Assembly: GCF_040958095.1 (NCBI RefSeq)
Contig: NC_091193.1
Coordinates: forward strand, 36,076,259 to 36,140,258
Length of the DNA stretch: 64,000 nt
DNA from: Procambarus clarkii
Taxonomy: Eukaryota; Arthropoda; Malacostraca; Decapoda; Cambaridae
Direction: 5' to 3'
This document shows, in pieces, positions 1,566 to 64,000 of the stretch (position 1 is its first letter; every line of letters starts with the position of its first letter). Both the position numbers and the translations under genes were made by a program. The notes beneath the pieces are model-generated. The model did not search any database, was not told the origin of the DNA, and saw only the letters and a program-made list of their open reading frames with translations.

Positions 1566-1935
1566 TGTCCTTGTGGCAAAGAGCCAGTTTTCATAGCTGA
1601 GGTGATTTCCAGTCACTGCAGTTATTTTTCCTTGTGGCAAAGAGCCAGTTTTTTATGGCTGAGGTGATTTCCAGTCACTGCAGTTATTTTTCCTTGTGGC
1701 AAAGAGCCAGTTTTTTTTATGGCTGAGGTGATTTCCAGTCACTGCAGTTATTTTTCCTTGTGGCAAAGAGCCAGTTTTTTTTTATGGCTGAGGTGATTTC
1801 CAGTCACTGCAGTTATTTTTCCTTGTGGCAAAGAGCCAGTTTTTTATGGCTGAGGTGATTTCCAGTCACTGCAGTTATAGAGAGCTAGTTTACTAGTGTC
1901 ACAACAATTATTTCCCTGTGGCAAAGAGTCAGTTT
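1566..1935. repeat. Minisatellite, ~62-bp unit, about 5 copies plus a degenerate one
   Basis: The unit contains CCTTGTGGCAAAGAGCCAG, a T run of variable length, then GGCTGAGGTGATTTCCAGTC. Copies start near 1568, 1630, 1691, 1757 and 1820, with a degraded last copy reaching 1935. Copies differ mostly in T-run length. The array lies between the end of the spliced gene and the end of the RPB2-type gene. Confidence 0.85.
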
Positions 1936-4900
1936 AATAAATAATAAGGCTTAGGTGAATGTATATTATTAAACAAGCATATTTAACAATAACAATATTT
2001 TTTTTTTTTTTAATTTCTTCAATATTTACCATGGATGTACATTTGTATGCTAAGTTAATATTTGCTAACATTAAATCGTCATGATAACGTTGAAGGTATT
2101 TTGATCCACAGATAACTCCACTTTCATTTTCATTTTTTTCTGTTTCTGTTTCATTATTTTGAATAGTTTCCAATTCAATGTGTTTCATGTCTGAGCGTAT
2201 TTGAGTCAATTCTGTATGAATTCGAGCAGCTCCTATACTACGGAATGATACAAGTTCCATGGGCCCTGTGGAAAGACCACCACGTCGTCCTCGAACTGGT
2301 GCTCCGGTCAGTTCAGAAAATACAACTTCATCTGCTCGTGAAGTGTGCATCGTAGCATTTGCGCGGTGATTGGTAACACACATATAAGAACCTTCATATA
2401 AACTAGCTAAAACTGGCTCATTATCTCTATTTAAATATGGTTCACCCTTATAGGGATTCATAAGGATTCCAGTACAAGTTTTTCGACCCCACTGTAGATG
2501 TTCAATAACATTTTCAAAAGTGAGAGTAAAAGCTGCATCCATGTAATTCAAATTATTAAAGGTATTGCAATATAAATCTGGAGCTTGTCTTTTAAGTGAA
2601 TGAGGGTTAACTAAAACATCAATGGGTACATTTGATGAAAACATATCACCCTGACTCATTAATTTAATGTAAGGCATATCCTGTTCACTAACTAATCGCC
2701 CAATTACACCTTTTTGTGAAGTGGGTGTTTGTAACTTATCACCTAAAGATGGTATATATGGTGACACTGTTATCAGAGAAAAACGCCAACTTTGTAGTAC
2801 TGGTAAATCTACACTATCTATTTTAAAGTACCTAAATGTAATGTAATTAGGATGATGTTCTTTAAAAGCTAAAGAATATTGAGATTTCTTCAACCGTTGT
2901 TGCCGTTCAAGGGAAGGGTGGTGTGGATCATTTACTGTAACTCGGTAGTCATTTCGACTCCCTTTTCCATTCTTCGTCCCTGTGGATACTGGAACAGAAT
3001 CGTCATATATAGGCTCTTTTAAATCCCCAATTTTACCATTCCAAATAAGAGCAAGAGTATTGGCATCTATGTGAACGAATTCTATTTCTCCATTTGTAAA
3101 ATTAAGCAAACTATTATCTTCTTGAAACTTGGGATTAACCCCTTTTAAAATTCCCAACTGAACACCACGTTGAAGTGGGGTATGCTGATCAAAATAGGTC
3201 TGACAAAAAGTTGGTAGTGCATTCTGTCCTGATCCATAATTATATCGAACAATTGATGTTTCATAAGAAACACCTGAAAATAACCCACGGTCTATACTAT
3301 CTTGTTTTACTGTAATACTGTCTTCGGGATTGTGCCAGTTTACTACTGCCACCATAGGATTTTGACAAGGAATGGGTAAAAGTTTACTCATTCGAGATGT
3401 TGTGTATAATGTATGAATAACTGTCTTTTGATGAATTTCACCTACAGAATGAGTATTGACAGTAATACCAGCATAATGACGATACAATTGCAGACTGTTA
3501 CTAATTCGAGGGGGATGGGCAGCATTAGGACGGCTAATCGCTCGAGCATTTGGCCCCATAATATTAGGTATTTTTTCCCGGTCATAACCAATATAGAGTA
3601 ATTCAAAATCCTCTTTGAGATCACTATTTTCTTTTCTGAGAAAAATCTGAGGTTGCATTTGAGGTGGTAAATAAAAAAATGGATTAGCCTCCATTTGAAA
3701 AGTGTCTATTTCCTTAGACGTATAGAGTTGGCCATTGGGTAAAATTTTATAAGACATACGTGGCAGACTGGTGCATATCCACAGTTGATTTTTTTTGTAT
3801 TCTAATAATTCTATACAGGCGATATTTAATTTCAAAATATATTGAACAAATCGGTATAAATTGTCTACTCCAAATAAACAAACATATTCCCATTGAACTA
3901 GAGGCAAATGAGGAAAAAAATGTTGAGCTGCAGAACCATTCTTGATCGAATCTAATGGGAAATTAAACAGTTTATTTTGAATAATTATGTAGACATATAT
4001 AGATTCTAACTGATCAAGTTGTGAAGGATTTCCCACTTGTCTTAGTTGAGGGAGATATGTAAATAAGAATTTATCAGGTTGTGAATTACACATGCTGGTA
4101 GAGGCGATTATCACATCAGGTATCATTTCTAATATGATACCACATCGTTGAGGAGTATCAGGTGTATTGAGTAAATCAATGAAACCGACCTCACTTACCG
4201 TTATAGATTTAGGCTCTTTGGCTTTGGAATCTTTAGGCAATAATTTTTGTAATCCACATGCCACCAGACATATATTGGCATATGAATTAGATGAATAATT
4301 CCGACTAAACCGACCAATTTTATTCCATTCATTATTCCCGCTATTATTAAATGAATTACCACCATTATTTTCATTTAAAGTATTTATACTTGCAGAATTG
4401 CTTAATATTTTTGTTTGCGTAATACTCTCATCAATATGACCACACCGAATAGCAGTGGCTTTAACTTTCAAAGGATTAATTGCAATCATAGCTACTCGTG
4501 GTCCTGATAATTTTAATCTTATATCATTGTTCCCTTCATTCATATTATTATTATTATTATTATTATTATGATTGGATGTATAATTTTCCAAAATTTTAAT
4601 ATTATTTTTGTTAGCATCGCTCCTTTTTAATCGATAATATTCCATTAAAACTGTTAAATTTTCTTGAGAAAGTGAATGGTTAAGATCTTTCAAAATTTTA
4701 ACCACCTTGTTATGGAGTAGTGTAGCATTTACTTTGCGTATAGCTAGATTTAAAAAACAATTAATAAATATTTCACCAGTTGTAAAGATTGCCATATTTC
4801 CTAAATGATTAATATCCTGGTTTATATAGGAAGAGAGAAAAGGCCATTTTTTAATCTTAGATTCTTCATAAATAATAACTGCTTTTTCTTTTCTGCTAAA

Positions 4901-5509
4901 ATGAGGACGTCGACGATCTGGCCATATTATCGACTTGATGGAACATACAGATTCACTCACAATGAAATTGCCCGGATAAACGTCAAAGGGGAAGTTTTCA
5001 CATATAAGACATTTAAACGGGAAATGTGTATTTGGGGGGATTAGCCGATTACTTTGCCAGCACTTCCATTGTTCATAATCAATAGGTCCCTCAGGATCTT
5101 CTACCAACATTTGCCACATTTGGCCACTTTTCATTACAGGCACTGCAAAATTATACTTGGCATAATCTGCTAGTCGCTTGTCATTATCCCATTCAGGAAG
5201 TTGTAGTCCTACCCCTAGTACAAATTTGCGATCTAGATAATATTTTATAAATTGGGATTCATCACTTTTGGATTTTAGTAGATATGGTTGATTACTCAGA
5301 TGAAATGTTATGCCAGGGTAAATTTTAAATAACTTTTCAAAACTATCATTTTCGATTTGAAGCTTATTGTAGAGACTGTGTCTAAGAAATAATTCTAATT
5401 CAGCATCGGCTGAATCAATGATCGAACATTTAGGACAGGGTTTAAGGTTTCCACCAGGTAAAGCCCATTGTCGATGCCGATAATTTAAAATACCTCTTGT
5501 GTTAATCAT
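1934..5509 (-). CDS. DNA-directed RNA polymerase second-largest subunit (RPB2/beta type), divergent, viral
   Basis: An uninterrupted 1191-residue frame with the C-terminal landmarks of RPB2/beta subunits. LNTPDTPQRCG stands where the family has its 'cPxeTPeGxxCG' motif. Further on come a VVNWHNPEDSI block with RGLF (the 'aixxYxGYNqEDSxxxxxxxxxRGlF' region) and GDKLQTPTSQKG, carrying two lysines eight residues apart (about K925 and K933). That is the spacing of the active-site lysine pair in RPB2. DMPYI and VNPHSL follow as the 'eDMPf...NPHaiPSRM' region. A GRRGGLSTGPMEL stretch matches the clamp segment. The histidine of the usual HGQKG is missing. Asn and Ser runs sit around residues 315-400. 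Low similarity to cellular enzymes argues for a viral enzyme such as LEF-8 or a nucleocytoplasmic virus subunit. The last ~25 residues follow a T-run and may be a frameshifted tail. RPB1 is not in the window. Confidence 0.82.
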   Translation of the reverse strand: MINTRGILNYRHRQWALPGGNLKPCPKCSIIDSADAELELFLRHSLYNKLQIENDSFEKLFKIYPGITFHLSNQPYLLKSKSDESQFIKYYLDRKFVLGVGLQLPEWDNDKRLADYAKYNFAVPVMKSGQMWQMLVEDPEGPIDYEQWKCWQSNRLIPPNTHFPFKCLICENFPFDVYPGNFIVSESVCSIKSIIWPDRRRPHFSRKEKAVIIYEESKIKKWPFLSSYINQDINHLGNMAIFTTGEIFINCFLNLAIRKVNATLLHNKVVKILKDLNHSLSQENLTVLMEYYRLKRSDANKNNIKILENYTSNHNNNNNNNNMNEGNNDIRLKLSGPRVAMIAINPLKVKATAIRCGHIDESITQTKILSNSASINTLNENNGGNSFNNSGNNEWNKIGRFSRNYSSNSYANICLVACGLQKLLPKDSKAKEPKSITVSEVGFIDLLNTPDTPQRCGIILEMIPDVIIASTSMCNSQPDKFLFTYLPQLRQVGNPSQLDQLESIYVYIIIQNKLFNFPLDSIKNGSAAQHFFPHLPLVQWEYVCLFGVDNLYRFVQYILKLNIACIELLEYKKNQLWICTSLPRMSYKILPNGQLYTSKEIDTFQMEANPFFYLPPQMQPQIFLRKENSDLKEDFELLYIGYDREKIPNIMGPNARAISRPNAAHPPRISNSLQLYRHYAGITVNTHSVGEIHQKTVIHTLYTTSRMSKLLPIPCQNPMVAVVNWHNPEDSITVKQDSIDRGLFSGVSYETSIVRYNYGSGQNALPTFCQTYFDQHTPLQRGVQLGILKGVNPKFQEDNSLLNFTNGEIEFVHIDANTLALIWNGKIGDLKEPIYDDSVPVSTGTKNGKGSRNDYRVTVNDPHHPSLERQQRLKKSQYSLAFKEHHPNYITFRYFKIDSVDLPVLQSWRFSLITVSPYIPSLGDKLQTPTSQKGVIGRLVSEQDMPYIKLMSQGDMFSSNVPIDVLVNPHSLKRQAPDLYCNTFNNLNYMDAAFTLTFENVIEHLQWGRKTCTGILMNPYKGEPYLNRDNEPVLASLYEGSYMCVTNHRANATMHTSRADEVVFSELTGAPVRGRRGGLSTGPMELVSFRSIGAARIHTELTQIRSDMKHIELETIQNNETETEKNENESGVICGSKYLQRYHDDLMLANINLAYKCTSMVNIEEIKKKKNIVIVKYACLIIYIHLSLIIY

Positions 5510-5729
5510 TATTATATAATAATTATATGGAAATGAAATGTAATTTATATTTTAGTTAATAAAAAAAATATATATTGTAAGTATCTTTTATCCCTGGAAT
5601 TGAAATACATAGTAAATAGATTTTGTTGAGATTTTTATTACAACAAAAGTCTTAAAACGTAAATAAAATAAAAGTGTAACAATTTAATTTTAATTCGGCC
5701 TATAAAAAATTATGTATTTTTTTTTTTTT

Positions 5730-6890: not shown

Positions 6891-7381
6891 AACAACAGTC
6901 TTTCCGAACTTCACAGAAGCAGCTCTTCTCCCAACTATATGTGATTGTAAATACTTAGTTATGGTGTTTTTCTTCATGTTACTTGATTTGAAGATTTTTC
7001 AGAGACTGACTCTGATAAGCACCTCAATCAATGGCTATTTGAATGATATCATACTGTTTTGAATAGTACTTTAAGATTGATAGAAATATTTTTAATATAT
7101 GAGAGAAGGAGTTGAAAAAATAGAGAGACTGATTTCATTCCACATCCTAGTTATATTGTATTTTAGTAAGCAATATAAAATTCTGCAGTTTGGTCGAATA
7201 CAATTGAACAATTTAAATAAATGGCAACGAACATATATAATCATGGTTTTATTGGAATTTTGTCCTAAATAATTGTATTTGGAATGGTAAATAGAGAACT
7301 AAATTTCTATAGTATTTTTTTTTTAGAATGGCCTAAAAGGAGATTAATTCTTTTTTTTTTTTAGTCTTATAAAACTTAACA
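6891..7381. other. AT-rich intergenic region
   Basis: No supported gene. It holds AT-rich sequence with T runs, including two (near 7320 and 7355) just upstream of the next gene. Confidence 0.5.
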
Positions 7382-8130
7382 ATGAATCGACGCCAACACA
7401 TTTGTAAAGACTTTGTCGATGACATAGTTCAGGAGGTGATTGAACCATTAAGTAATCTAGGTTCTGGGTCTGATAAAAATGTTGATAGTAATTTTATTGT
7501 TTTAAAAATGAAAGAAGATCCCTCTAAATTTGTAAATACATTACTGGATTCTGTTACTAATAATATATTAGACTATTATTATAATAGAAGTCAAAATGTA
7601 CCATTGTCAACTGTTCCATCACCCAAAAGAAAAAGAAAAAAAAAAACATATTATCAAATGAAGAGGATGAATTAATTAAAATTGAAATTTTAGGGAAAGC
7701 AGTTTTAAACATTTTTTCTCTTCATAATGAATATAATCGTATTAAGGATAGTATTGTAAATCAACATATGAAATCAAAATCACCAAAAAAACAAAAAATA
7801 CAGTTACCACCAATATTAAAAAACGATGAAACTGTAGATATGATCAAACTCTTCAATTCCTTCCATTCAACCGTTTTGAAATACCTTTTGAAAACAATAC
7901 AAAAAATAATTACAGAAGTTTATGGAATAAAACTCTGTGAAGATTTAACTAAGCTAGTTAATTCTAAAAGTTATCCATATTTTTTATTTGAATATTTTCT
8001 TAAACATCAATCATCAAGCGACGATATTAAACAGCAGTTAGAGTGTCTTAAACATTCAAGTATACTAGTCTATAACTGGATAATTCAAAATTGTATTGAT
8101 ATTAAAATTAAACCCGAAAATGAAAGTTAA
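7382..8130 (+). pseudogene. Basic virus-like protein of unknown function, frameshifted in an A run
   Basis: The frame starts at ATG 7382. Its first ~85 residues are acidic and helical. It then reaches a lysine/arginine cluster (KRKRKKK, a possible nuclear localisation signal) encoded in an A-rich tract around 7629-7648. There the frame breaks, and the continuation is open in the next frame to TAA at 8130, about 250 codons in all. The C-terminal part is helical and Lys/Leu-rich. The shift lies in a homopolymer, so it may be an assembly error or real decay. The stop directly abuts the ATG of the capping-enzyme gene (8131), suggesting a packed viral gene pair. No family recognised. Confidence 0.5.
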
Positions 8131-9624
8131 ATGTAATTTATAATCGATGAAATATTAGCAAATGCTATTTTTGTAAATGGTAGAGAAATTCTACAAAATA
8201 ACATTTTAATGGCCTATGCAGCTCATAAATATTCGATGTTTAAAAACAATGGTAAATTGTATTCTGCTACGGAAATTATACATTCATGTATCAAGACTAA
8301 TCGTAACCTACCCCCTCATAAAATTTCTATTTCATTTGAGGCTATAATGACGGTAGGACAGAATACTGACCAAAATTTAATTTGTAAAAATACTCATTTT
8401 GTAGAAGAACGTGAATGTCGGCGTCATGTGGATATTGCACATCCACTTATTCAAGCTCATTTAGCTCCCTTGGGTGAACTATCCATGCAATATATTTCTA
8501 GGGTTTTAGAAATGCGGATTGGAGACTATCGCCTAATTATTGAACCACAACAGAATAGATATTTTATTCAATATAAGAAATTCCGTGACAAAAAAGTGGT
8601 TTTTCGTTTAGATTCCTTCACATTAGAATTTGTTTATATTAGTGATGAAGGGGAATCTTTTTACGATGCCCAGTATATACAACATAATAGTAGTGATGAT
8701 AGCAGTGGGGAAAGCATGTTAGTAGGTATGGCTAGCTTTCTTGATGGAAGTGATCTTTGTATAAAAACAACTTACCTCCTAGATTATTCAACCAAAACAA
8801 TTCTATATCATCGATACATTCCTAATGATCATACCCAAATATTCCCTTTCACTTTAGAAACAGAAGATTTACAACAAAGTGAGGCGGGACCTGCTTTAAC
8901 AATGAATACTGAGGGTGTACCTACAATATCACCGCCTTCGGGAACTTCAATTTACTGGTATACTTCTTGGAGATTAGAAGCTCAACTTCCTTTAAATCTT
9001 AGTATGTATCAACATGTTCATGAAGATAGTACTCCCCATCATCCAACTCCGTCTGAGAGTTTGAATCAATCTCCTGTTTATATATTCCCAAAGTTGGATG
9101 GTAATAATGGAATTTTACGTTTTTACCCAAGTCTTTTTGTTATTTCAAATCCTCTGATGTTATCGACATCACATCCACATTTAATACCCCAACATATTCT
9201 CCATTCTTTGATCGATTTCATTTTTACAGTAGAAACTGATCTATACTCTATAAACAACAATTCATCTTCCTTTATGGTACATAATTATCGACCAGTTGCC
9301 ATTATAGACATTGTCTCTACGGCTTTTAATGCTGCAGAAAGGATGAATATATTACAAGTATTACGAGCCCATTTTAGAAATGATTTAGCACCTTATTACA
9401 TCTTCTTTCAAGGGGAATCAAGCATATCCAAACCATCAATATCCCCATCATTACCATTTGAAAATTTTCATGACGGTGAGATATATGAGGTGTTGTTAAA
9501 TAACAACAGAAACATTATAAAGGTTTGCCGACATCGCCCAGATAAATCTCGAGCGAATCCACTTAAAACAGTTAATATTATATTGGGTATTCAAAAGTTA
9601 GAAGAAAGTTTTTTGGAAGTATAA
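8131..9624 (+). pseudogene. mRNA capping enzyme, LEF-4 type (RNA 5'-triphosphatase plus guanylyltransferase)
   Basis: An open frame of 471 codons from ATG 8209. The same frame runs back to an ATG at 8131 that is followed at once by TAA (8134-8136), so either the start is broken or translation begins at 8209. The N-terminal half has beta-strand-rich blocks such as ISISFEAIMTVG and FTLEFVYIS, fitting a tunnel-type metal-dependent triphosphatase, though with fewer paired glutamates than usual. The C-terminal half has the guanylyltransferase motifs in order: KLDG (lysine at ~295 from 8209), a VETDLYS block, PVAIIDIVST, HDGEIYEV, then a basic strand with IIKVCRHR. This domain order is that of LEF-4 of baculoviruses and nudiviruses and of the poxvirus large capping subunit. 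No methyltransferase domain is fused. It should cap transcripts made by the viral polymerase. Apart from codon 2 the frame is intact. Confidence 0.62.
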
Positions 9625-11989: not shown

Positions 11990-12275
11990 CTCATTTTCAT
12001 TGATTGATTTACTTCCCACATCTTGTTTGCTAGATGAAGATTGACTTGGAGAAACAAATAATATTTTAAACTAACACTTGGAGAGAGAGAGAGAGAGAGA
12101 GAGAGCAGGTCTAAATAAACCCTTGCTCTTCTTGTTGAGGGCAGTCACCTACTACTCAGGCAGTGTTATTGTGCTGGGTTTTTCTTTGACAAAACACATC
12201 CAAGTGAGCCATCCTCTTCTCTTCCCTTCATTGTAAATATATAATATAGGGTAGGAGAAAAAGAGAGAGAGAGAG
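11990..12275. repeat. AT-rich spacer with (GA)n microsatellites
   Basis: Two GA runs (about 12082-12106 and 12261-12275) flank a pyrimidine-rich spacer. The second forms the left target site of the LTR-like element. No gene supported. Confidence 0.6.
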
Positions 12276-13450: not shown

Positions 13451-13712
13451 AGTTTGCCAGGCTATGCAAATCATTACAGGTTCGCCATACTTCATGGACA
13501 CTTCATTCTGAGTAGTAAAACAACAATCACACAATCTAAAGCACATTCAACATTTAATGTTTCTTCAACCTCAACCTCATACGTATGTTGTATAATTTAC
13601 TTAAGTCTATTATAACAAAAGTATATCATATTACTATAATGTAATAAGAGTCAATGTATATATTATAAATCAGAATAATTATATAAATTAATTAATTTTG
13701 TTTTCTTTTCAG

Positions 13713-14329: not shown

Positions 14330-14635
14330 TAAGTGTATTGGAACATTGACCAAATCTTTAAACAACTTTTTTACTTGTTTCTGGTGGTAACTGGCACCTC
14401 AAAGAACATATAAAAGGAGTAGAAATATTAATGAGATTATTAATTCTGTCGGAGTGAGAGTAAACACAGATATATATCTCTCCTACCTGAACTTCTTTTC
14501 TATTACCACCACATTTTCTTGGCATATATCATGTCAGAAGAACAATACGTAAACTTGTTAAGGTTCATTTTGGATCTACACTAGCTGCTGGATATGACTT
14601 GTACAGGTATAGTTGGAATTTACTTTTTTTTTAAT

Positions 14636-14690
<55 letters not shown>

Positions 14691-46604: not shown

Positions 46605-46653
<49 letters not shown>

Positions 46654-46779
46654 AAGTAGCTGATTTATCTAAATCTTTGTTTGTCAATGACCCTAATTCT
46701 TCCTTATTGCCTGTATCATGCTCATTATTATCTTCTTTACTGTTATCACTACCACCATCATCATCATTATTATTACTAT

Positions 46780-46816
<37 letters not shown>

Positions 46817-46822
46817 GCCACC

Positions 46823-46869
<47 letters not shown>

Positions 46870-53833: not shown

Positions 53834-55153
53834 ATGTCCAGTTCAACTAGGAGTCAATTAATTGTTTTTAATTTCCAAAATCGTAATGGAAAAGAAAAAT
53901 ATTTCCAAATAAGAATTTCAAAAACATATTCAACTGGTAATTTTAATAAAAAGTTTTTCCCACTGTTAACAGTAAAACAAGAAATACCACTAAGATTGTT
54001 AATTCATTACTATATTTCACTTAATATATTTACAGGAGAGGGATTAGGATCAGTAAAAAAAGGGGGAATGAATTATGGATTAATTAGGAGATTCAAAAGA
54101 GCCAAAGTAAGAGAAGATAGAAACAGTCCAACAGAAGATGATGAAATTCATAGAAATGTCATACAAGATAATATTGAAGATGAAGTAGACGAGATCAGTG
54201 GTCCTGGTCCATCTAATGGAAATAAATCTTTTTATGGTCTACTCCAGAAGGGTGGAATAAATGCCCCCTCTCATAGAAATCTCAATTCTTCTTCTCGTCC
54301 AAGGGGTATTCAAAACAATGGTACTTATATTTTCCCTCAATCGGAATCCAATAAAAATAACTTTATAGTTAGAAAAATATATCAAATCGCTGGATTGGGC
54401 TTTCCAGGATTCAAACTGAAATTTAATACTCGTTTCTTTGACATGAAAACTTTAAAACAATATTTGTCTAAATACATTGAACAAATACCTAAAAATGAAG
54501 GTTTTTCGTTAGAATATAAATACATAATATTATATATTAGAATGTTAACAAATTTATGGACATTTTTAATGGTAAAACAAGACCGGAAGGATCAAAAGTT
54601 AATTTATAAATATCTTATTAATGAAATTGGTAAGTTAAGAAAACATATTCAATTTAACAATAAAAAGTATATAGATAATAATAGCTTATACATGGTAAAT
54701 TTTATTGAAAAAGCAAACATGTATAGTAGTGAATTATTTTACAAATTTGTTAGAAAATTGACGGACACTGTAATTTGTGATCATGATATTAAAGAGATCA
54801 ATTCTAGAGATGCCACTAAATTACACTTCAAATTACTTACTGTGTTTGATTCACTAACTGCTGCTACACATCAACAGGCAGTAGTACGTTTACAGAAATA
54901 TATTTTGTACAGGGCATTAGACTATGATAATGCATCTTCCCAAAAAATGAATACTAATAATATTAAGTATAATTTCAGATATGCTAAGATCAATAGAGAG
55001 ACTTGTGAAATTAATGACACTGATATCCATAGAAATATGGGTGATGATGATGATGAAGATTCTGATAATAATGTTGATGTTGATGGTAGTGGGGATACCC
55101 AAGGTCCCTTAGTAATTTTAAAATGTCGAAAAATTAGAAGGAAAGATAAATAA
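53834..55153 (+). CDS. Uncharacterised 439-residue virus-like protein
   Basis: Intact frame from ATG 53834. The N-terminal ~75 residues are basic and beta-rich. A linker with acidic residues follows (about 95-125), then a helical middle (about 200-370), and an Asp-rich tail (GDDDDEDSDNNVDVDG) before a basic end (KCRKIRRKDK). No catalytic motif recognised. It sits between the primase-helicase and RPB3-type genes on the same strand, so a role in replication, transcription or virion structure is possible but not shown. Confidence 0.5.
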   Translation: MSSSTRSQLIVFNFQNRNGKEKYFQIRISKTYSTGNFNKKFFPLLTVKQEIPLRLLIHYYISLNIFTGEGLGSVKKGGMNYGLIRRFKRAKVREDRNSPTEDDEIHRNVIQDNIEDEVDEISGPGPSNGNKSFYGLLQKGGINAPSHRNLNSSSRPRGIQNNGTYIFPQSESNKNNFIVRKIYQIAGLGFPGFKLKFNTRFFDMKTLKQYLSKYIEQIPKNEGFSLEYKYIILYIRMLTNLWTFLMVKQDRKDQKLIYKYLINEIGKLRKHIQFNNKKYIDNNSLYMVNFIEKANMYSSELFYKFVRKLTDTVICDHDIKEINSRDATKLHFKLLTVFDSLTAATHQQAVVRLQKYILYRALDYDNASSQKMNTNNIKYNFRYAKINRETCEINDTDIHRNMGDDDDEDSDNNVDVDGSGDTQGPLVILKCRKIRRKDK

Positions 55154-55415
55154 ACTTTACTTATTATTTCCTCAAAGTTGAAGAGAATTAGTGACCCTTG
55201 CTCTTGAACCAGTGCCAGTGCCAGGGGCAAATGGGTGAGGGATGGATGACTGATGATGGGTAAAGAGTGATAATTGTATGCATGACCTGGGTATGGTTTT
55301 CCGGTATTCCATGATAATTTAAGTTTTTTTTTTATTCCTAAAATGAATATATATTGTAACCTTACATACTATATATTAAGTAAACGGTTTATTCAAAACA
55401 ATATTATTTCAAGAC
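55154..55415. other. Intergenic region
   Basis: A short GC-richer stretch (55195-55260) then AT-rich sequence with a T run. No gene supported. Confidence 0.4.
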
Positions 55416-56087
55416 ATGGCTATCAATACAGATCAGATAACAATTAAAATTTTAGATTTATCACCTGACATGATACAATTTAAAATAGAAAAAATAAATT
55501 TAGCTCTAGTAAATGGATTGCGGCGGATTTTTATAGCTGAGACTCCTACTATAGCCATTGATTGGGTTCAAATTAAAAAAAATACAACTATATTAAGTGA
55601 TGAGTTCATTATTCATCGTCTAGGTCTAATTCCAATACCTTCAGATGAATTCATTAATAAATTAAAGATTCCATGGAAATGTCAATGTATTAACTTTTGT
55701 ACGAAATGTGCAGTAGAATTTATTTTGGATGTTAAATGTCGTGAAGACAAACAATACCTCATAACAACATTTAATATAATACCATCTTTTCACAAAGAAA
55801 TCCCAATTCCTTTGGTAAAACTTAATAATGGACATGAATTATGCTTAAAAGCATATGCTATCAAGGGGATTGGCAAAAACCACGTCAAATGAAATCCGAC
55901 AATTAATATAGATTTTGATTGCTGTAACAACACTTCTTCTTATTTTCTGGAAGATTGTAATAAACGAAAACAATTTTATTTCAATATTGAAAGTTCAGGT
56001 GCATTAAAGCCTGAAAATATTATGCTAATAGGCCTAGAAACTTTAAAAAACAAATTAACCTTCTTATTGGATAAATTTAAATGTTAA
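55416..56087 (+). pseudogene. RNA polymerase subunit RPB3-like (alpha-type), one in-frame TGA
   Basis: Starts at ATG 55416. The opening follows the RPB3 pattern: a strand-rich dimerisation region with NGLRRIFIAETPTIAIDWV, HRLGLIPI, then a zinc site CQCINFCTKC (cysteines at about 89, 91, 95, 98) followed by VEFILDVKC. Near the end of the first part comes KGIGK, the family's 'KGxGKxHAKWsP' segment; at the tryptophan position there is a TGA (55890-55892). The same frame stays open to TAA 56085-56087, and the C-terminal part has [12 protein letters not shown], the 'ESxGxlpPe' motif. Total 224 codons including stops, shorter than cellular RPB3 (about 270-300). RPB3 nucleates assembly of RPB2 and RPB1. 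Similarity to the cellular subunit is higher than for the RPB2-type gene, hinting at separate capture or slower divergence. A single base change would explain the stop, so decay is recent. Confidence 0.8.
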
Positions 56088-56228: not shown

Positions 56229-58865
56229 TTAGAAAAATTTAGTTTTTATTAAATCATATTTCGTTTTAACCTGATTAGAGTCGTTTAATTCTATATCTTC
56301 ATTTAATGTATAAGATGAGAAGTTATTATAAATCCAAATGAAAAGTACTAAACTTATCAAAAAAATAGGAATTATAATAATAATTATAAGAACAGTCGAA
56401 TTGATATTGATTGTTTCTTGTGTGTCATTTGGTGTTGTTGAGTCGGTGGTTTCTTCTTTGGGAGTTTCTTCTGTTGTTTCTAAAGTTGACTGGCTTTCTT
56501 CGGTTGTTGGTGGGGTGGTTGCCTTAATAATTATTATTTCTTCTGTTGAGACAACTGTATATGTTTTCGTCACTGTATCATTTTCCCATGGTGGTGGTGT
56601 TGTGGCCATGGCCGGTCTTTCTGGTGATGTTGTTGCCTGGCTTTCTTGAGGGGTAGATGCTGTCGTCTCCTCATGGGTGTCGTTGGTTGTTGTGGTTATG
56701 GTTGTTGTTGTTGTTGTCGAGGGAGGAGTAGTTCCTGTTTCCTCGTAGTCCTGGCTTTCTTGAGGGGTAGATGCTGTCGTCTCCTCATGGGTGTCGTTGG
56801 TTGTTGTGGTTATGGTTGTTGTTGTTGTTGTTGTTGTCGAGGGAGGAGTAGTTCCTGTTTCCTCGTAGTCCTGGCTTTCTTGAGGGGTAGATGCTGTCGT
56901 CTCCTCATGGGTGTCGTTGGTTGTTGTGGTTATGGTTGTTGTTGTTGTTGTTGTTGTCGAGGGAGGAGTAGTTCCTGTTTCCTCGTAGTCCTGGCTTTCT
57001 TGAGGGGTAGATGCTGTCGTCTCTTCATGGGTGTCGTTGGTTGTTGTGGTTATGGTTGTTGTTGTTGTTGTTGTTGTCGAGGGAGGAGTAGTTCCTGTTT
57101 CCTCGTAGTCCTGGCTTTCTTGAGGGGTAGATGCTGTCGTCTCCTCATGGGTGTCGTTGGTTGTTGTGGTTATGGTTGTTGTTGTTGAGGGAGGAGTAGT
57201 TCCTGTTTCCTCGTAGTCCTGGCTTTCTTGAGGGGTAGATGCTGTCGTCTCCTCATGGGTGTCGTTGGTTGTTGTGGTTATGGTTGTTGTTGTTGTTGTT
57301 GTTGTCGAGGGAGGAGTAGTTCCTGTTTCCTCGTAGTCCTGGCTTTCTTGAGGGGTAGATGCTGTCGTCTCTTCATGGGTGTCGTTGGTTGTTGTGGTTA
57401 TGGTTGTTGTTGTTGTTGTTGTTGTCGAGGGAGGAGTAGTTCCTGTTTCCTCGTAGTCCTGGCTTTCTTGAGGGGTAGATGCTGTCGTCTCCTCATGGGT
57501 GTCGTTGGTTGTTGTGGTTATGGTTGTTGTTGTTGTTGTTGTTGTCGAGGGAGGAGTAGTTCCTGTTTCCTCGTAGTCCTGGCTTTCTTGAGGGGTAGAT
57601 GCTGTCGTCTCTTCATGGGTGTCGTTGGTTGTTGTGGTTATGGTTGTTGTTGTTGTTGTTGTTGTCGAGGGAGGAGTAGTTCCTGTTTCCTCGTAGTCCT
57701 GGCTTTCTTGAGGGGTAGATGCTGTCGTCTCCTCATGGGTGTCGTTGGTTGTTGTGGTTATGGTTGTTGTTGTTGTTGTCGAGGGAGGAGTAGTTCCTGT
57801 TTCCTCGTAGTCCTGGCTTTCTTGAGGGGTAGATGCTGTCGTCTCCTCATGGGTGTCGTTGGTTGTTGTGGTTATGGTTGTTGTTGTTGTTGTTGTTGTC
57901 GAGGGAGGAGTAGTTCCTGTTTCCTCGTAGTCCTGGCTTTCTTGAGGGGTAGATGCTGTCGTCTCTTCATGGGTGTCGTTGGTTGTTGTGGTTATGGTTG
58001 TTGTTGTTGTTGTTGTTGTCGAGGGAGGAGTAGTTCCTGTTTCCTCGTAGTCCTGGCTTTCTTGAGGGGTAGATGCTGTCGTCTCCTCATGGGTGTCGTT
58101 GGTTGTTGTGGTTATGGTTGTTGTTGTTGTTGTCGAGGGAGGAGTAGTTCCTGTTTCCTCGTAGTCCTGGCTTTCTTGAGGGGTAGATGCTGTCGTCTCC
58201 TCATGGGTGTCGTTGGTTGTTGTGGTTATGGTTGTTGTTGTTGTTGTTGTTGTCGAGGGAGGAGTAGTTCCTGTTTCCTCGTAGTCCTGGCTTTCTTGAG
58301 GGGTAGATGCTGTCGTCTCATGGGTGTCGTTGGTTGTTGTTGTTGTTGTCGAGGGAGGAGTAGTTCCTGTTTCCTCGTAGTCCTGGCTTTCTTGAGGGGT
58401 AGATGCTGTCGTCTCCTCATGGGTGTCGTTGGTTGTTGTGGTTATGGTTGTTGTTGTTGTTGTTGTTGTCGAGGGAGGAGTAGTTCCTGTTTCCTCGTAG
58501 TCCTGGCTTTCTTGAGGGGTAGATGCTGTCGTCTCCTCATGGGTGTCATTGGTTGTTGATATTACTACCAGTCTTGGTTTGGCTGTTGTTGAGTTGCTAA
58601 TAAGAGGTTTAGTTATCTTTTTCTTTTTAGTTGTTGTGTTGTAAGCTGCTCTCTCATTTTCTGAAGTTATCATTAGTGAGACAAATGTAGATGTTTCCGT
58701 CACTGTAACATTTTCCCATGATGTTAGAGGGGCTGTTGATGTTTTCTTATTTTCATCCGTTACAATTAAGTGGGAAGATGTAATTGGTGTAGTTGTGTTT
58801 TTCTTTTTGGACCACATACAACTTTTGGTAAATCCAACTATTAATATGAGTATTAGCACATTCAT
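56229..58865 (-). CDS. Mucin-like type I membrane glycoprotein with ~17 tandem repeats
   Basis: 878 residues from ATG 58865. It has a signal peptide (MNVLILILIVGFTKSC), a Thr/Lys-rich spacer, then about 17 copies of a ~36-40-residue unit whose core is NDTHEETTASTPQESQDYEE followed by TGTTPPS and a poly-Thr/Ile run of variable length. A unique region follows, then a transmembrane segment (STVLIIIIIIPIFLISLVLFIWIY, about residues 825-848) and a ~30-residue cytoplasmic tail. Each unit has an N-x-T site and many Ser/Thr for O-glycosylation. Repeats are nearly identical at DNA level (56640-58555), so copy number must be young or unstable. A surface or envelope mucin is the natural reading; the virus-like neighbours favour a viral gene, but a host origin is not excluded. 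Confidence 0.7.
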   Translation of the reverse strand: MNVLILILIVGFTKSCMWSKKKNTTTPITSSHLIVTDENKKTSTAPLTSWENVTVTETSTFVSLMITSENERAAYNTTTKKKKITKPLISNSTTAKPRLVVISTTNDTHEETTASTPQESQDYEETGTTPPSTTTTTTTTITTTTNDTHEETTASTPQESQDYEETGTTPPSTTTTTTNDTHETTASTPQESQDYEETGTTPPSTTTTTTTTITTTTNDTHEETTASTPQESQDYEETGTTPPSTTTTTTITTTTNDTHEETTASTPQESQDYEETGTTPPSTTTTTTTTITTTTNDTHEETTASTPQESQDYEETGTTPPSTTTTTTTTITTTTNDTHEETTASTPQESQDYEETGTTPPSTTTTTTITTTTNDTHEETTASTPQESQDYEETGTTPPSTTTTTTTTITTTTNDTHEETTASTPQESQDYEETGTTPPSTTTTTTTTITTTTNDTHEETTASTPQESQDYEETGTTPPSTTTTTTTTITTTTNDTHEETTASTPQESQDYEETGTTPPSTTTTTTTTITTTTNDTHEETTASTPQESQDYEETGTTPPSTTTTITTTTNDTHEETTASTPQESQDYEETGTTPPSTTTTTTTTITTTTNDTHEETTASTPQESQDYEETGTTPPSTTTTTTTTITTTTNDTHEETTASTPQESQDYEETGTTPPSTTTTTTTTITTTTNDTHEETTASTPQESQDYEETGTTPPSTTTTTTITTTTNDTHEETTASTPQESQATTSPERPAMATTPPPWENDTVTKTYTVVSTEEIIIIKATTPPTTEESQSTLETTEETPKEETTDSTTPNDTQETININSTVLIIIIIIPIFLISLVLFIWIYNNFSSYTLNEDIELNDSNQVKTKYDLIKTKFF

Positions 58866-59398
58866 TTTCTTTTAGTGTCAGGAAAATGTTGATATGTGAA
58901 TCGATCAAAATTCACAGAAGAAATGAAATAAATTTGCTGTGATTTACTATATTTATATGGTCCACTAGGAAAATCGAGCACAAGACACTGCCAGGGTAGC
59001 AGGCACAAACCCCGTTAACAGCACTAGCCTGTGTGAGAGAGAGACACACACACACGTCCGCTCTCTCCGGGAGGCAGCGTGCCACTGTAAAGAAAAGGAG
59101 CCGGAGGATCTTTTTTTATCTCCTCTCTCCATGGTGTAGGTGCCGGAAGCACTCAACTATCTTTTAATATCAAATCTTGTTTGCTCCCAGTATGTGATTT
59201 ACCTACCAATTTCAGAAGAATTTCGCAAAAGTTTTAGGCAAATTTCCTTACAAATGGTGATTTACTAAAAAAAAAAAAAAAATAGAATTTAGTTTTGTTA
59301 AAAAAAAAAATATAACATATTGGAATAATACAAAAATCTATTAATTTCTTTTAATAATTTTTAGTTTTACATTATCATTTTTAATGTATAATTTCTTA
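58866..59398. other. Intergenic region
   Basis: Contains a GC-richer segment (about 58965-59160) with (GAGA)/(CACA) microsatellite, then AT-rich sequence with two long A runs near 59268 and 59300. Open frames in it look like chance. Confidence 0.45.
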
Positions 59399-60832
59399 TT
59401 AGAACATATTAAGGAAATTTAATGCTGCTTCCTCTTGATTTTCATAATTAATACAATTCTCCTCTTCATTTAATTCTCCAACTAAAGGAGCTACTATTTT
59501 ACTATTTTCCACATCTAAATTACACTTCTCTGCCTCTTTAAAATCGTCCTCATTAACTTTTTTCTCAATTTTTATTCGTTTGAATGGTGGTTCTTCTGCT
59601 GTGACACTTCCATTACATATATGTTCTTCTACCTGAACTTCATCTATTACTTTAGAAATAATATCTTTATATTTGGGCATTAGTTTCTTCCTAATGCTAT
59701 TATTAGTTAAAAGAATTTGTTTAATTGCATCAGAGGCTTGATTTCGGATATTGTTAGCTGTGACATCTGAATAAAAAACAGAATCTAAATTACGTAGATA
59801 CAGAATTATTTTGTTATTAAAAACTCCAATTTCAGATAAACCAAATGAAATTAAAGCATTAACAGGACACGGAGATTCTCTAATTTCAACAAAGGTTTCA
59901 CTTGAGTAAGGGATTCGGTTACGACCAATCCCATATATTTTAGAATTTTTGATGTAAACATTTCCTAGTGGCGAACCCATGTAAACTTCATCTTCTTTAG
60001 GGTTGGCCACAAAAGGACAAAATTGAACACCTAAATTTATACGTTGACGCAAACACTCGTTCTGAAATTGTGGCTGTTTTTGTATAAGTATTTCATTACA
60101 TTTTAAAGAACATTGTTTATCTTTATGACCATCTATATACATTGATGCGCTCCAGATTTTACCCTGGGAAGGTTTATCAATTTTTAATGCCTCAGCTATT
60201 GGTTGAATTAGATTTTCTTCAAATATTTTCTGAATATCTTCATCGAATTCAATATTTCCAATCTTATTAGGTACTAAGGCAAATTTTGTTCCTCCCGAAA
60301 CTATAAAACATTTGACCTCCAACAACTTAATGGTTAAGCTAGTTAAATAATCATTGTTAATTCTATAATATTTCATGTTGTTTTGGTTATTTGCCTTGAT
60401 TTTTTCTTCAAATACAGAACTACCGAGTTTTTCATATTGTTCTTTAAATTTAGTTAATTTCTCTAAAATATTGTTTTTATTCAACTCTCTTAAATTTTCG
60501 ATGGTTATCAATTTTTTGTGAATATTGGGTGGCTCATTGGGAAGTATATAATAATTCGAACTTGAAGCTTTGTTCAGCATTTCTGCAATAATTTCCATAA
60601 CCTCTTCATCTTCGTTGATGAAGTTGAGGGTGCTATAATACTTTTCTTCAGTTTGAAGTTGAGGGGGAGGAGGGTGAGATTGATAAATTCCATCTGTAGT
60701 CGTTGGTTGGTGATATATTGAGGTTGCATTTTTTGCCTGAATTATTGTTTGTTGTTGCTGTAGTTGTGTTGTTGCTGCTGTTGGATAGGTAGTAGAAGGT
60801 AAATATTTACCATAATATCCTGAGGTATTCAT
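59399..60832 (-). CDS. Uncharacterised 477-residue virus-like protein
   Basis: Intact frame from ATG 60832. The N-terminal ~65 residues are Thr/Gln/Pro-rich and probably disordered. The middle has a ~250-residue folded region with several cysteines (SLKCNEILIQ, FCPFVANPKED, SPCPVNALISFGLSEIG). The C-terminus is acidic with a basic KRIKIEKK stretch, a possible nuclear signal. No family recognised. It lies directly downstream of the DNA polymerase on the same strand, 70-200 bases beyond the (TA)n tract. Confidence 0.5.
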   Translation of the reverse strand: MNTSGYYGKYLPSTTYPTAATTQLQQQQTIIQAKNATSIYHQPTTTDGIYQSHPPPPQLQTEEKYYSTLNFINEDEEVMEIIAEMLNKASSSNYYILPNEPPNIHKKLITIENLRELNKNNILEKLTKFKEQYEKLGSSVFEEKIKANNQNNMKYYRINNDYLTSLTIKLLEVKCFIVSGGTKFALVPNKIGNIEFDEDIQKIFEENLIQPIAEALKIDKPSQGKIWSASMYIDGHKDKQCSLKCNEILIQKQPQFQNECLRQRINLGVQFCPFVANPKEDEVYMGSPLGNVYIKNSKIYGIGRNRIPYSSETFVEIRESPCPVNALISFGLSEIGVFNNKIILYLRNLDSVFYSDVTANNIRNQASDAIKQILLTNNSIRKKLMPKYKDIISKVIDEVQVEEHICNGSVTAEEPPFKRIKIEKKVNEDDFKEAEKCNLDVENSKIVAPLVGELNEEENCINYENQEEAALNFLNMF

Positions 60833-60907
60833 TGTATGAAAGAGTCAAAATGATATAATGAGTTATGAACTTTTGATATCCTAATTATATACTGACTGAC
60901 TTTAAAA

Positions 60908-61044
<137 letters not shown>

Positions 61045-64000
61045 AACTTTAAATAAAATGTATAATATGAATTTTCTGCCAATGTGTCTCGCCTTATGGT
61101 GATAAATGGTAATATAATTAACCACCGATCATCCTCATTATCTATCTTATTTTGTTTATTTTCCATAATTATATCATACATATCACACTCCAAACTATAA
61201 ACAAAAATAAAAAAGGCTAACATCTCTTCGAAACAGTTAGAATTTAATGTGAATAAAAAGTCTGTATTATTAATATTGCTACTATTCACCATTGAGATCG
61301 TTGGTACCAAATGTGTCAGTTTGCTTACATTACCAGAAAGAAAATGTGATATGTTTTTTAAATTGCTAAATTTTCGACATTGAGAATCAGAATCTAGAGT
61401 CACCCACATTTTTCTTTTGGTCTTATCATAATGAAAAGTTGTACGTAAAATAAAATTACATTCAGAATTTGTTTTCTTATTCTTCTTCTTATTATTATTA
61501 TTCTTATTATTATTATTATTATTATTATTAGTAGTAGTAGTACTATACCACCATTTATGTTTTCTAGACAAAGACGACATATAAAATTTTGAATTTTCTA
61601 AACACTCGTAATGAAATGAGGGCCATATTGAAGTTATTTCAATGCAAGGAATATTTAACAAAAGCTCACAGACACTCAGATTACAAACTCTATAACCATG
61701 TGCAACATGTTTTTCATAGAGCTGATATCTTTCATTTTTTTGATAATCCAAGCTTAAGTTTTCTATACTATATTGAGACGCATTTTCTGAATCAGCAGTC
61801 TGAATAAGAGCATTAACAGTTTGGCCTATATCAGAAATTAATCCCATTAAACGATTAATTATTTGTATTTGGGGTCTATATGTAATAGCTGGACATAGAC
61901 ACACACTCTTGGGTAAAGTTAAAGCCCTTGGTACTAATGGTACCATTGTATAGTATGAAATATGAGTACCACCTTCTGCTGTTATTGTACCTGGATGAAG
62001 TTGCTCAATTTTAGTTCCCAAGCAATAATGAATGCAACTAGTTGATTTATACATATGAAGAGGTCGAATTTTAATGGTACTCAAAAACCGCTGGTGGTTG
62101 ATCTTGTTACGGCCCTCTCGGGACGCAACAGGGTCCTTACTCTGATGTTGTTAGAGGAAGATATAATGTATCCGTTCCCAAGCCAGTAGTGGCTATCAAG
62201 GAATGAGATCCGTGACGCAAGTAACTTAAAGGGAGTAGGGAAAGAAAGTTAAGAACTTAATATAATATAATGTCCGTCACCAATAAATAATATATAAAAC
62301 TGTTACACAAGGGGGGGGGGGGTATTAACACTATACAAGGGGATTAATCCATAATCGTTGTCTTCTGCTGAAGACGCTGGTGCCACAACTCTCGGTGCTG
62401 AGTCCTTGGTGCTTTCTTCGTGGCCTCACGACGTGTCCTCTGAGAATGCCGAGCCTACCCGGGCCACAGGTCAGCCAAAACACAGGTCCACTGGGGGCAC
62501 CGCCGTGGAGGCCGTCAACCACACGTCCAGCTGGTCTGCTGGCAGGTTCCGAGCCAACAAGGCTGGTACGGCCACTCCACGAACGATAATAAGGGAACGC
62601 CCTAGACAGGAGCCTCGTGTGACAACACAAGTCACTCTCCTGTCTTCAGTACCCCAGTGGATGATCGTCTCCAACAGTCGGTCCCGGGTAAATCCTTTCA
62701 CTGCCACTCCACTGGCAGGCTAACACACCACAGTGTTCTTCCGGGGGGACGACGTCACAACAGCTGCAGCAAGGTTCAAGGTATGGAGACTGGCTGCCTC
62801 GGGTAGACTGACTCCACTTCCATCACAGTGGTCCCAGGTCGGCTCTGTAAGCAGACACGTCATCAATTACCGGGACACTAATACACCTCACTTACGGGCT
62901 CGGGCACAAACACCTGACGTATCCAGTCCATAGATGGCGCTGTCGTCGGAGCACCATCTCACCAGAGGTCAGGAGCGGCGGTGTTGAGCGTGGAACCAGA
63001 GTGGAAACTGGTCCTCGAGGCCAGTACACGCTGTCCTCACCAGGTGTCGTCGTCCGTTTGGCGGGGGTTTCGGGAGCTGACCCACAGATGGCGTGGTTGT
63101 CACTGCTCCAGGCTCGGACGCTGGATCCGGGTTCGTAACAGATCTCATCATCATTTTGATTTATTATTTGATTAAACCATTGTGTTACTTCATTTCTAAT
63201 ATTCTTAAAAATGTGAGCTGGGTCATTGTCCCGTAAAATCATAAGAACATGTTGCAATAAATTTGTTAAGTCACGATGATTACTAAGGTTGATACGTTTT
63301 TTATAACCACTGATTTTACATTTATTGCCAACTTGTCTTTCTTGTATAGCCATATAATGTTTTTTTTTATTAGCACTAGAACACCAAATGCATTTTCGAA
63401 AGCTAGTTTGAGATAACATGTAGAAGGTATATCTTGTCTGAGATTAGTATTATAACGATTAGCCAATTCATCTCCAGTTCCTGCTGAACGAGATACCTTC
63501 AGAAATAATGAATCAGTGTCGCCATATAAAACTGTCGCTCCAATTCCATTTTCATCTTTAGTATAAAAATGTTGAGCCGATTAAGATGATGCCGACCATA
63601 ACCAGTAACCATGCATGGGACCAGTTCATCTGCGAGTAGTTTAATGGCCGCCATTGCCCCATAAATAGAATTTACCATAATCTTAAGAGCGTTAGCTTGA
63701 GTGGTCATTCCTAATTTTTTCATAATACCTCGTTCATTTACTAATTTTTCACATATCTGACGTAATGGTGATTGAGTGTATGGTTTTCCTTCTTGGACTT
63801 TAACACTAACATAAGCAAAATAAGGATCTTCATCCATAATAAGTATATGAAATAAATTTTCATCAACTTTTGGGAGTTGACAACGTGAAATTCGAGTCAC
63901 GAACCCTCGATTTAAATTATAGTCAATAATTAAACTAGGATATAATGAACAAAAATCAAAAACAAATATTGAATGAGTATTAGAAGCTAAATGTACTCCA
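61045..64000 (-). pseudogene. Family B DNA polymerase, partial, frameshifted and interrupted by an LTR-like insertion
   Basis: The gene enters from the right edge. Motif A reads DFCSLYPSLI (about 63929-63959), motif B ANALKIMVNSIYGAMA (about 63660-63710), and motif C YGDTDS (63509-63526) in a different frame. So a frameshift lies near 63570, and another near 63415 before a thumb segment (KKKHYMAIQERQ). The gene is then split by the element at 62105-63140. The target site lies within the coding sequence, and the flanks are in one frame once the element and one duplicate are discounted. The C-terminal part (ORF from about 62084) runs to the (TA)n tract. The N-terminal exonuclease part lies outside the window. 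This was the replicative polymerase of the virus-like element; it cannot be functional here. Confidence 0.85.
62105..63140 (-). mobile_element. LTR-like element (probable solo LTR), copy 2, inside the DNA polymerase gene, TSD GATCT
   Basis: 1036 bp, reverse complement of the copy at 12276-13312 with high identity. It begins TGTTACGGCC and ends TTCGTAACA on the plus strand, flanked by GATCT at 62100-62104 and 63141-63145. A G run near 62308 differs between copies. The insertion is later than the viral gene it cuts. Confidence 0.8.

What the first reader, a model, noticed from the sequence alone, without database searches (positions are those of the whole stretch)
1934..64000. Decayed endogenous large DNA virus combining PIF-type and nucleocytoplasmic-virus-type genes
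The sequence shows, in one 64-kb window, motifs of PolB, a D5-type primase-SF3 helicase, RPB2- and RPB3-type RNA polymerase subunits, a LEF-4-type capping enzyme and a PIF-3-like protein. PIF-3 and LEF-4 are known from the baculovirus/nudivirus/hytrosavirus/nimavirus assemblage. A cellular-looking RPB3 and a D5 primase-helicase are more typical of nucleocytoplasmic viruses. The combination does not match a family I can name. That all blocks come from one virus is inference from composition and gene content.
Basis: partly seen in the sequence, partly recalled or inferred. Interest (0 to 1): 0.92.

Follow-up and report, generated by a model that had tools for sequence, protein, structure and literature searches.

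The report
Crayfish genome's multicopy giant DNA virus
The window holds one damaged copy of a large DNA virus that has inserted itself about a hundred times into what appears to be a crayfish genome; it carries its own transcription and replication genes and fits no virus family that we could match.

Summary
The observation largely holds. PolB, a primase/SF3-helicase, RPB2 and RPB3 are clearly present. The "LEF-4" and "PIF-3" labels rest on weak matches; an ortholog of the PIF-3-like protein passes Pfam's cut-off, and 0 of 10 cysteine-preserving shuffles match. The blocks belong to one element: a second copy is collinear with the window minus five insertions. The gene order recurs genome-wide: 59 of 115 PIF-3-like copies have a PolB match within 25 kb, all in one arrangement (0.13 expected). 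Viral-type genes lie over about 135 kb around the window, not checked in a second copy. This copy is decayed (PolB interrupted, stops in the RPB3 and F-box frames), but the family is young: six RPB2 copies differ by dS 0-0.008. "Nucleocytoplasmic-type" is only partly right: RPB3 and SAM synthetase are animal-type. "PIF-type" is unproven: Pfam p74, PIF-1 and PIF-2 find nothing above cut-off. PolB and RPB2 group with a crayfish-associated and unnamed metagenome-type proteins. Best reading: a recently active, integrating large DNA virus lineage of crayfish; nine paper searches found no description of it.

The parts
1568..1878 (.). 62-bp tandem repeat, 5 units, beside the 3' end of RPB2
   Evidence: matched in five other copies
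1937..5551 (-). RPB2-like RNA polymerase subunit, open stop to stop
   Evidence: Pfam Rpb2_6 E 5.7e-13; 40 rows at 38 scored loci in the genome; relatives P0002, P0003 at 36-44% identity
5733..6248 (-). 172-aa frame with C-terminal hydrophobic stretch (by eye), conserved in C7 copy
   Evidence: 95% identical 172-aa frame in L090; no family above cut-off
7373..8127 (+). Two overlapping frames upstream of the capping-like gene
   Evidence: present in C7 copy
8137..9621 (+). LEF-4-like / capping-enzyme-like protein with KLDG motif
   Evidence: motif; mRNA_cap_C E 0.043 here, 0.0074 in C7, both below cut-off; 90 rows in the genome, 40 of them 513-aa frames without stop
12275..13312 (.). Insertion absent from C7 copy; 92% identical to the one at 62104-63141, inverted
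13679..14326 (+). C2H2 zinc-finger-like frame, one 216-aa frame in C7
   Evidence: zinc-finger label by eye
14534..18930 (-). LINE-type insertion, absent from C7 copy
   Evidence: reverse-transcriptase-type frames, label by eye
18930..28110 (+). Older non-LTR-type element (gag-like, RT, RNase H) shared with the C7 copy, split here by an insertion at 21759-26904
   Evidence: labels by eye
28674..29849 (+). S-adenosylmethionine synthetase, one uninterrupted frame, animal type, carried by the element
   Evidence: Pfam E 5e-64; type-2 isoform E 2.6e-192; 107 rows at 105 scored loci; 73 of 74 with a PIF-3-like gene nearby have the same order and strand
30182..32305 (-). Repeat-rich member of a paralogous family (SCTHAASQDIF motif)
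   Evidence: relatives read by eye in L087 and L084; L087-L084 80.8% over 266 bp
32673..34703 (+). F-box protein; one 678-aa frame in C7, interrupted by an in-frame stop here
   Evidence: Pfam F-box E 5.7e-7
35211..36098 (+). 296-aa frame of unknown function, open in both copies
36196..37492 (+). Hydrophobic N-terminal protein; one 457-aa frame in C7, split here
37487..43775 (+). Insertion with 24-bp tandem array and RT-type frame, absent from C7 copy
45188..48179 (-). Low-complexity frame and short frames; 46973-48179 aligned in C7, the rest falls on N there
48373..49203 (+). Fic/DOC-family protein with HPFSDGNGR motif
   Evidence: Pfam Fic E 1.8e-10
49146..49625 (+). PIF-3-like protein: N-terminal hydrophobic anchor (by eye) and cysteine-rich domain
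   Evidence: Pfam PIF3 E 0.0035 here, below cut-off, 9e-5 in ortholog P0125; 115 copies counted in the genome
49688..52096 (+). Primase part (archaeo-eukaryotic-primase-like motifs); one 766-aa frame in C7
   Evidence: no Pfam or PHROG family
52444..53394 (+). SF3 helicase with GDSNSGKT Walker A
   Evidence: PHROGs E 1e-10; motif seen in the C7 copy
53834..55150 (+). 439-aa frame of unknown function, open in the window
   Evidence: no Pfam family
55380..56084 (+). RPB3, animal Pol II type; 235-aa frame in C7, interrupted by an in-frame stop here
56232..58871 (-). Mucin-like repeat protein with 120-bp period repeats and terminal hydrophobic stretches (by eye)
59402..60844 (-). 481-aa protein beside PolB, open in both copies, no family matched
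   Evidence: 97% identical 481-aa frame in L094; no Pfam/PHROG
60888..64000 (-). Family-B DNA polymerase, interrupted by a 1-kb insertion at 62104-63141 and cut by the window end

Best explanation
The window is part of one decayed provirus of a large double-stranded DNA virus that has multiplied in its host's genome, much as endogenous nimaviruses do: a giant, virus-derived mobile element. Shown: one collinear unit, about a hundred copies, recent spread, a replicative-type PolB, a primase-SF3 helicase, an RPB2, an animal-type RPB3, Fic, F-box and SAM-synthetase genes. Seen in the flanks of this copy only: IAP, RNR and integrase-type genes. Inferred: it copies its DNA with PolB and primase-helicase; its RPB2, with RPB3 and the capping-like protein, forms a virus-specific transcription machine; IAP, Fic and F-box proteins act on host defence; it inserts by one of its own recombinases. 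This copy was then hit by host LINE-type and short elements and by stop changes.
For: Collinearity with the C7 copy at 94.5-99.5% over the main non-repetitive blocks, insertions apart. Order and strand conserved: PIF-3-like to PolB in 59 of the 59 with a neighbour, PIF-3-like to RPB2 in 18 of 18, SAM synthetase to PIF-3-like in 73 of 74. Scored loci: RPB2 38 of 2328 first-look candidates, SAM synthetase 105 of 209, capping-like 86 of 151, PIF-3-like 115 of the 135 scored, and 93 of 165 for the PolB family, which need not all be this element. RPB2 dS 0-0.008 among six copies; PolB dS 0.005-0.026 and dN/dS 0.26-0.82 among eight. Flanking genes: BIR E 1e-52, RNR small chain E 3e-66, and below cut-off rve E 7e-7, Erv1/Alr E 2e-4, tyrosine recombinase E 0.008. 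Long relatives of RPB2 and PolB exist elsewhere.
Against: No capsid gene was recognised in the Pfam scans made, and no RPB1 motif in the window and nine flank pieces. Termini and target site not found. Flank genes were not compared with a second copy, and the integrase genes could be transposable elements; no inverted repeats were found beside them. Near-identity of copies could partly be segmental duplication or tandem gain: five capping-like copies lie about 3 kb apart on C21. Of 115 PIF-3-like copies, 56 have no listed PolB within 25 kb and 97 no listed RPB2 within 60 kb, so many copies may be partial, although the lists are capped.
Confidence: 0.85

Rival explanations
1. It is a divergent member of the class Naldaviricetes (PIF viruses) that kept an RNA polymerase, for example a new family near Lefavirales, with PIF-0/1/2 too divergent for Pfam.
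For: PIF-3 ortholog above cut-off, 0 of 10 shuffles match; RPB2, capping-like protein, PolB, weak Erv1/Alr and a weak tyrosine recombinase parallel the lef-8, lef-4, dnapol, p33 and vlf-1 entries of Table 2 in PMC10271883 (passages); probable crustacean host.
Against: p74 and PIF-2 no match at 1e-3, PIF-1 nothing above cut-off in the whole genome (the controls rang nowhere, so absence is not shown). No LEF-4 family among the matches. A fused primase-SF3 helicase is not the naldavirus layout (recalled). No TAAG enrichment upstream of genes (12 of 69). PIF3 covers about 40 of 149 positions.
Confidence: 0.35
2. It is a nucleocytoplasmic-type virus (Nucleocytoviricota) endogenised in a crustacean.
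For: Primase-SF3 helicase and RPB2 in the window, RNR and Erv1/Alr-like oxidase in the flanks; the RPB2 profile reaches poxvirus-type rpo132 (E 1e-7; virus name recalled).
Against: That profile matches cellular RPB2 better (E 6e-12). RPB3 is animal-type. No capsid or packaging gene appeared in the Pfam scans.
Confidence: 0.12
3. It is an endogenous nimavirus of the known giant-transposon kind.
For: Same broad host group, IAP genes, integrase-type genes, multicopy integration, as in PMC10871703 (abstract; section 12).
Against: Lefaviral RNA polymerase genes are not found in nimavirids (PMC10271883 passage), whereas RPB2 is here; no p74 or PIF-2 match; no protein named as nimaviral among the listed PolB hits.
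Confidence: 0.05
4. The PIF-3-like protein is an ordinary EGF-like secreted protein and the PIF label is a cysteine-pattern accident.
For: Late-nodulin and EGF entries also match weakly; the best genome-wide PIF3 E-value is only 1.3.
Against: The ortholog passes the PIF3 cut-off while cysteine-preserving shuffles do not match; anchor plus cysteine domain is PIF-3-like in layout (recalled).
Confidence: 0.4

Closest known systems
Endogenous nimaviruses (Majanivirus, sesarmid nimaviruses; PMC10871703)
   Same: Large DNA virus multiplied in crustacean genomes, with tyrosine recombinase or Ginger2-like integrase, IAP genes (abstract; section 12)
   Different: This element has RPB2, RPB3 and primase-SF3 helicase; no p74 or PIF-2 match; termini unknown
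Lefavirales (baculo-, nudi-, hytrosaviruses; PMC10271883 passages)
   Same: PolB, RPB2-type subunit, capping-like protein (weak), PIF-3-like protein (borderline), sulfhydryl-oxidase-like and tyrosine-recombinase-like proteins (weak)
   Different: LEF-9, PIF-0, -1, -2 not found; LEF-4 and LEF-8 homology not shown; animal-type RPB3; fused primase-helicase
Nucleocytoviricota
   Same: D5-like primase-helicase, RPB2, RNR in the flank
   Different: No capsid or packaging gene recognised; RPB3 of animal type
Unnamed proteins P0002, P0003 (RPB2) and P0005-P0012 (PolB)
   Same: Closest sequence relatives apart from crayfish-associated ones; the PolB set of ten is one group with support 100/100
   Different: 30-44% identical; source organisms and gene context unknown
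PolB labelled Astathelohania contejeani (P0004)
   Same: 79% identical, 1162 aa; the labelled organism is a parasite of crayfish (reference titles in PMC10845963 passages)
   Different: Probably crayfish-host DNA in a parasite assembly (inference)

Membership tests
Naldaviricetes | pif0/p74 | tested here: inconclusive
   PF04583: no match at 1e-3 in the genome; control rang nowhere
Naldaviricetes | pif1 | tested here: inconclusive
   PF05092: two single sub-threshold matches on other contigs, best E 1.0
Naldaviricetes | pif2 | tested here: inconclusive
   PF04631: no match at 1e-3; control rang nowhere
Naldaviricetes | pif3 | tested here: inconclusive
   Window 17.9 bits, below cut-off; ortholog P0125 23.1 bits, above 22.2; partial profile only; 0 of 10 shuffles match
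Naldaviricetes | pif5 | not tested
   No targeted genome search; no match in the Pfam scans
Naldaviricetes | DNA polymerase of the naldavirus clade | tested here: inconclusive
   PolB present, but no named naldavirus among the 120 of 688 hits listed and no reference sequences for a tree
Naldaviricetes | p33 sulfhydryl oxidase | tested here: inconclusive
   Erv1/Alr E 2e-4, below cut-off, in flank L083
Lefavirales | lef-8 (RPB2-type) | tested here: inconclusive
   RPB2 present; LEF-8 kinship not resolved, model failed
Lefavirales | lef-4 | tested here: inconclusive
   mRNA_cap_C sub-threshold, KLDG motif; model failed
Lefavirales | lef-9 (RPB1-type motif) | tested here: inconclusive
   D[FCYLV]DGD motif absent from the window and nine flank pieces, parts of which read N; rest of element not read
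Nimaviridae | no lefaviral RNA polymerase homologs | tested here: not met
   RPB2 and RPB3 present in the element, though LEF-8 homology is not shown
Nucleocytoviricota | D5-type primase-helicase | tested here: met
   SF3 E 1e-10 by PHROGs, primase-like motifs by eye; kinship to viral D5 itself not tested by a tree
Nucleocytoviricota | double-jelly-roll capsid, packaging ATPase | not tested
   None appeared in the Pfam scans made; no targeted genome search
Giant virus-derived transposon (functional class) | multicopy integration with own integrase and defined termini | tested here: inconclusive
   Multicopy met; integrase-type genes in flanks, below cut-off; termini not found

The most novel reading that the evidence does not exclude
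A class-level new lineage of arthropod large DNA viruses that joins a PIF-type entry protein to a nucleocytoplasmic-like replication set and its own RNA polymerase, with an RPB3 taken from an animal, and which has become a recently active giant transposable element in crayfish germ lines.
Probability: 0.3. Interest if true: 0.92.

Novelty: new variant of a known kind. Interest (0 to 1): 0.78.

Why it matters
If right, a whole lineage of large animal DNA viruses is hidden in crayfish genomes and in metagenome-type data, without a name in our searches. It bears on how PIF viruses relate to viruses with a fuller RNA polymerase, suggests that a virus took an RNA polymerase subunit from an animal, and gives a second case beside nimaviruses of a large DNA virus living as a mobile element in crustaceans. 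With around a hundred copies, several megabases of the host genome may derive from it (inference from copy number and the roughly 45-60 kb between RPB2 and PolB in most of the copies where both were listed).

Tried and rejected
Scans of IMG/VR with RPB2 alone and with a three-sequence profile: no relatives; with a PolB profile 66 loci at 21-31% identity. AlphaFold of the capping-like protein (mean pLDDT 32.6) and of RPB2 (28.2) failed, so no fold search was made. PDB matches of the PIF-3-like protein were artefacts or very weak EGF; the capping-like protein and the helicase frame found no PDB match. No Rfam or tRNA hits, no telomere repeat in the window, no TAAG enrichment. Rejected: a lone host retrocopy as the origin of this SAM synthetase, because it sits in the same arrangement in 73 of 74 copies with a PIF-3-like neighbour; independent viruses. 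In the first PolB tree two of ten relatives (P0007, P0008) dropped out for a reason I did not trace; the second tree holds all ten. Nine paper searches found no description of this element; the library holds open-licence papers only. Papers seen: PMC10871703 abstract, section 12 and passages; PMC10271883, PMC12863088 and PMC10845963 passages; the rest search listings only. Names such as zinc finger, gag, RT, Nudix, vWA and the primase motifs, and the species of PDB entries, are recalled or by eye.
Full report
What is there. The window lies at C44:36076259-36140258 of a 4.03-Gb, 2308-contig genome. A protein 96% identical over 89% of the searched RPB2 region is labelled Procambarus clarkii, so the host is probably the red swamp crayfish; this is inference. 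The window contains clear matches to RPB2 (E 5.7e-13) and F-box, RPB3, Fic and family-B DNA polymerase and an SF3 helicase. In the C7 copy the helicase follows a 766-aa frame with primase-like motifs. The capping-like protein has a KLDG motif and only sub-threshold family support.

PIF-3. The window protein scores 17.9 bits against a cut-off of 22.2. Two relatives were found: a near-identical one at 20.0 bits and a 76%-identical one at 23.1 bits, above cut-off. None of ten shuffles that keep the cysteines in place matches PIF3. Over the whole genome at E up to 10 the PIF3 model gives 118 matches, none above cut-off; I assign 115 to copies of this gene by the matched profile stretch, and one of the other three may be a copy too. 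The best genome-wide E-value is 1.3, so the genome scan alone is not significant. I call it PIF-3-like, not PIF-3.

One virus, many copies. A second copy on C7, fetched in five pieces, matches the window in order from about base 1123 at 94.5-99.5% over the main blocks; repeat-rich stretches match less well (about 77-91%) and about 44.8-47.0 kb of the window falls on N there. Five window stretches, 17.9 kb in all, are missing from it: about 12275-13312, 14534-18930, 21759-26904, 37487-43775 and 62104-63141. At four of the five the C7 matches overlap by 4-6 bases, as target-site duplications would give; this was not checked further. The first and last are the same element, 92% identical and inverted. 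An older retroelement and the SAM synthetase are in both copies. Genome-wide, 59 of 115 PIF-3-like copies have a listed PolB within 25 kb; all 59 lie downstream on the opposite strand at 10.9-20.4 kb, where 0.13 would be expected at random. Eighteen have a listed RPB2 within 60 kb, all upstream on the opposite strand. Of 105 SAM-synthetase loci, 74 have a PIF-3-like gene within 40 kb, all on the same strand and 73 in the same order. Copies without a listed neighbour may be partial, or the neighbour may be missing from the capped lists.

Age and state. Six RPB2 copies differ by dS 0-0.008, on 0-6 synonymous changes a pair; pairs with the window have dN/dS 0.62-1.15, as for decay after insertion. 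Eight PolB copies have dS 0.005-0.026 and dN/dS 0.26-0.82; codons with several changes were split by a rough rule there. These values suggest recent spread with some constraint; no absolute date is given because no rate was measured. In this copy PolB is interrupted by an element, and the RPB3 and F-box frames have a stop that the C7 copy lacks. The capping-like gene is a 513-aa frame without stops in 40 of 90 rows.

Beyond the window. Viral-type genes of this copy's flanks run from a tyrosine-recombinase-like frame on one side (E 0.008, below cut-off) to a ribonucleotide reductase small chain on the other (E 3e-66), about 135 kb apart with the window between. Among them are IAP-type BIR proteins (E 1e-52 and 2e-31), an Erv1/Alr-like oxidase (E 2e-4, below cut-off) and an rve integrase (E 7e-7, below cut-off). 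A second rve frame is 95% identical over 1067 bases, without flanking similarity, and no inverted repeats were found beside either. A Nudix-like and a vWA-like frame were seen by eye only. A cysteine-rich 335-aa frame has no family match. No RPB1-type DxDGD motif was found in the window and nine flank pieces. The flanks were not compared with a second copy, and the ends of the element were not found.

Affinities. PolB from another copy has 688 hits, 120 of them listed: one 79% identical protein labelled Astathelohania contejeani, eight unnamed proteins at 30-35%, then a drop to about 24% archaeal and other polymerases. The crayfish PolB and these nine form one group of ten with 100/100 support and a long stem. 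RPB2 has two unnamed relatives and its profile matches cellular RPB2 best (E 6e-12), rpo132 at 1e-7. The PolB profile matches herpesvirus-type and Pol alpha entries about equally (1.9e-33 and 1.7e-32; herpes label recalled). RPB3 matches Pol II RPB3 entries at E 4e-61 and 1e-57 (animal, recalled) and about 1e-35 (yeasts, recalled), so it was most likely taken from an animal; SAM synthetase likewise. PMC10271883 (passages) lists pif0, 1, 2, 3, 5, dnapol and p33 as common to the four naldavirus families; of these only PolB is firm here, and pif3 and p33 are borderline.

How it likely works. Shown: gene content, copy number, collinearity, recent spread. Inferred: PolB with the primase-helicase replicates the DNA; RPB2 with the acquired RPB3 and the capping-like protein makes virus-controlled transcripts, perhaps borrowing other host subunits since no RPB1 was seen; IAP, Fic and F-box proteins act on host defence; an encoded recombinase inserts the genome, as proposed for endogenous nimaviruses, which PMC10871703 calls giant transposable elements (abstract; section 12). 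The window copy is a dead insertion later used as a landing site by LINE-type and short elements.

Verdict. A real, unassigned, recently active lineage; the 'PIF plus nucleocytoplasmic hybrid' reading is attractive but only half shown. No paper describing it was found in nine searches of an open-licence library.

Noticed in passing
G000:C21:3624748-3638063: Five copies of the capping-like gene on one strand at even spacing of about 2.96 kb: a tandem array of this part of the element.
   Followed up: no
G000:C504:43707-58278: Three copies of the SAM synthetase about 6.7 kb apart on one strand, each with a TAG.
   Followed up: no
G000:C44:35772549-35816591: Probably another copy of the element about 260-300 kb upstream on the same contig (SAM synthetase, PIF-3-like, PolB rows).
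   Followed up: no
L097:2017-3021: Cysteine-rich 335-aa frame in the flank of this copy, no family in Pfam or PHROGs; a candidate for a divergent entry protein.
   Followed up: partly
window 56636-58558: About 14-15 near-identical 120-bp repeats in a mucin-like frame, aligning poorly between the two copies.
   Followed up: no
window 59402-60844: 481-aa protein beside PolB, open in both copies compared and without a family match; possible structural protein.
   Followed up: partly
P0004: A public microsporidian assembly seems to carry crayfish provirus DNA (79% PolB), probably host contamination.
   Followed up: partly
L095, L096: Several diverged copies of an unknown gene family read in this flank.
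   Followed up: no
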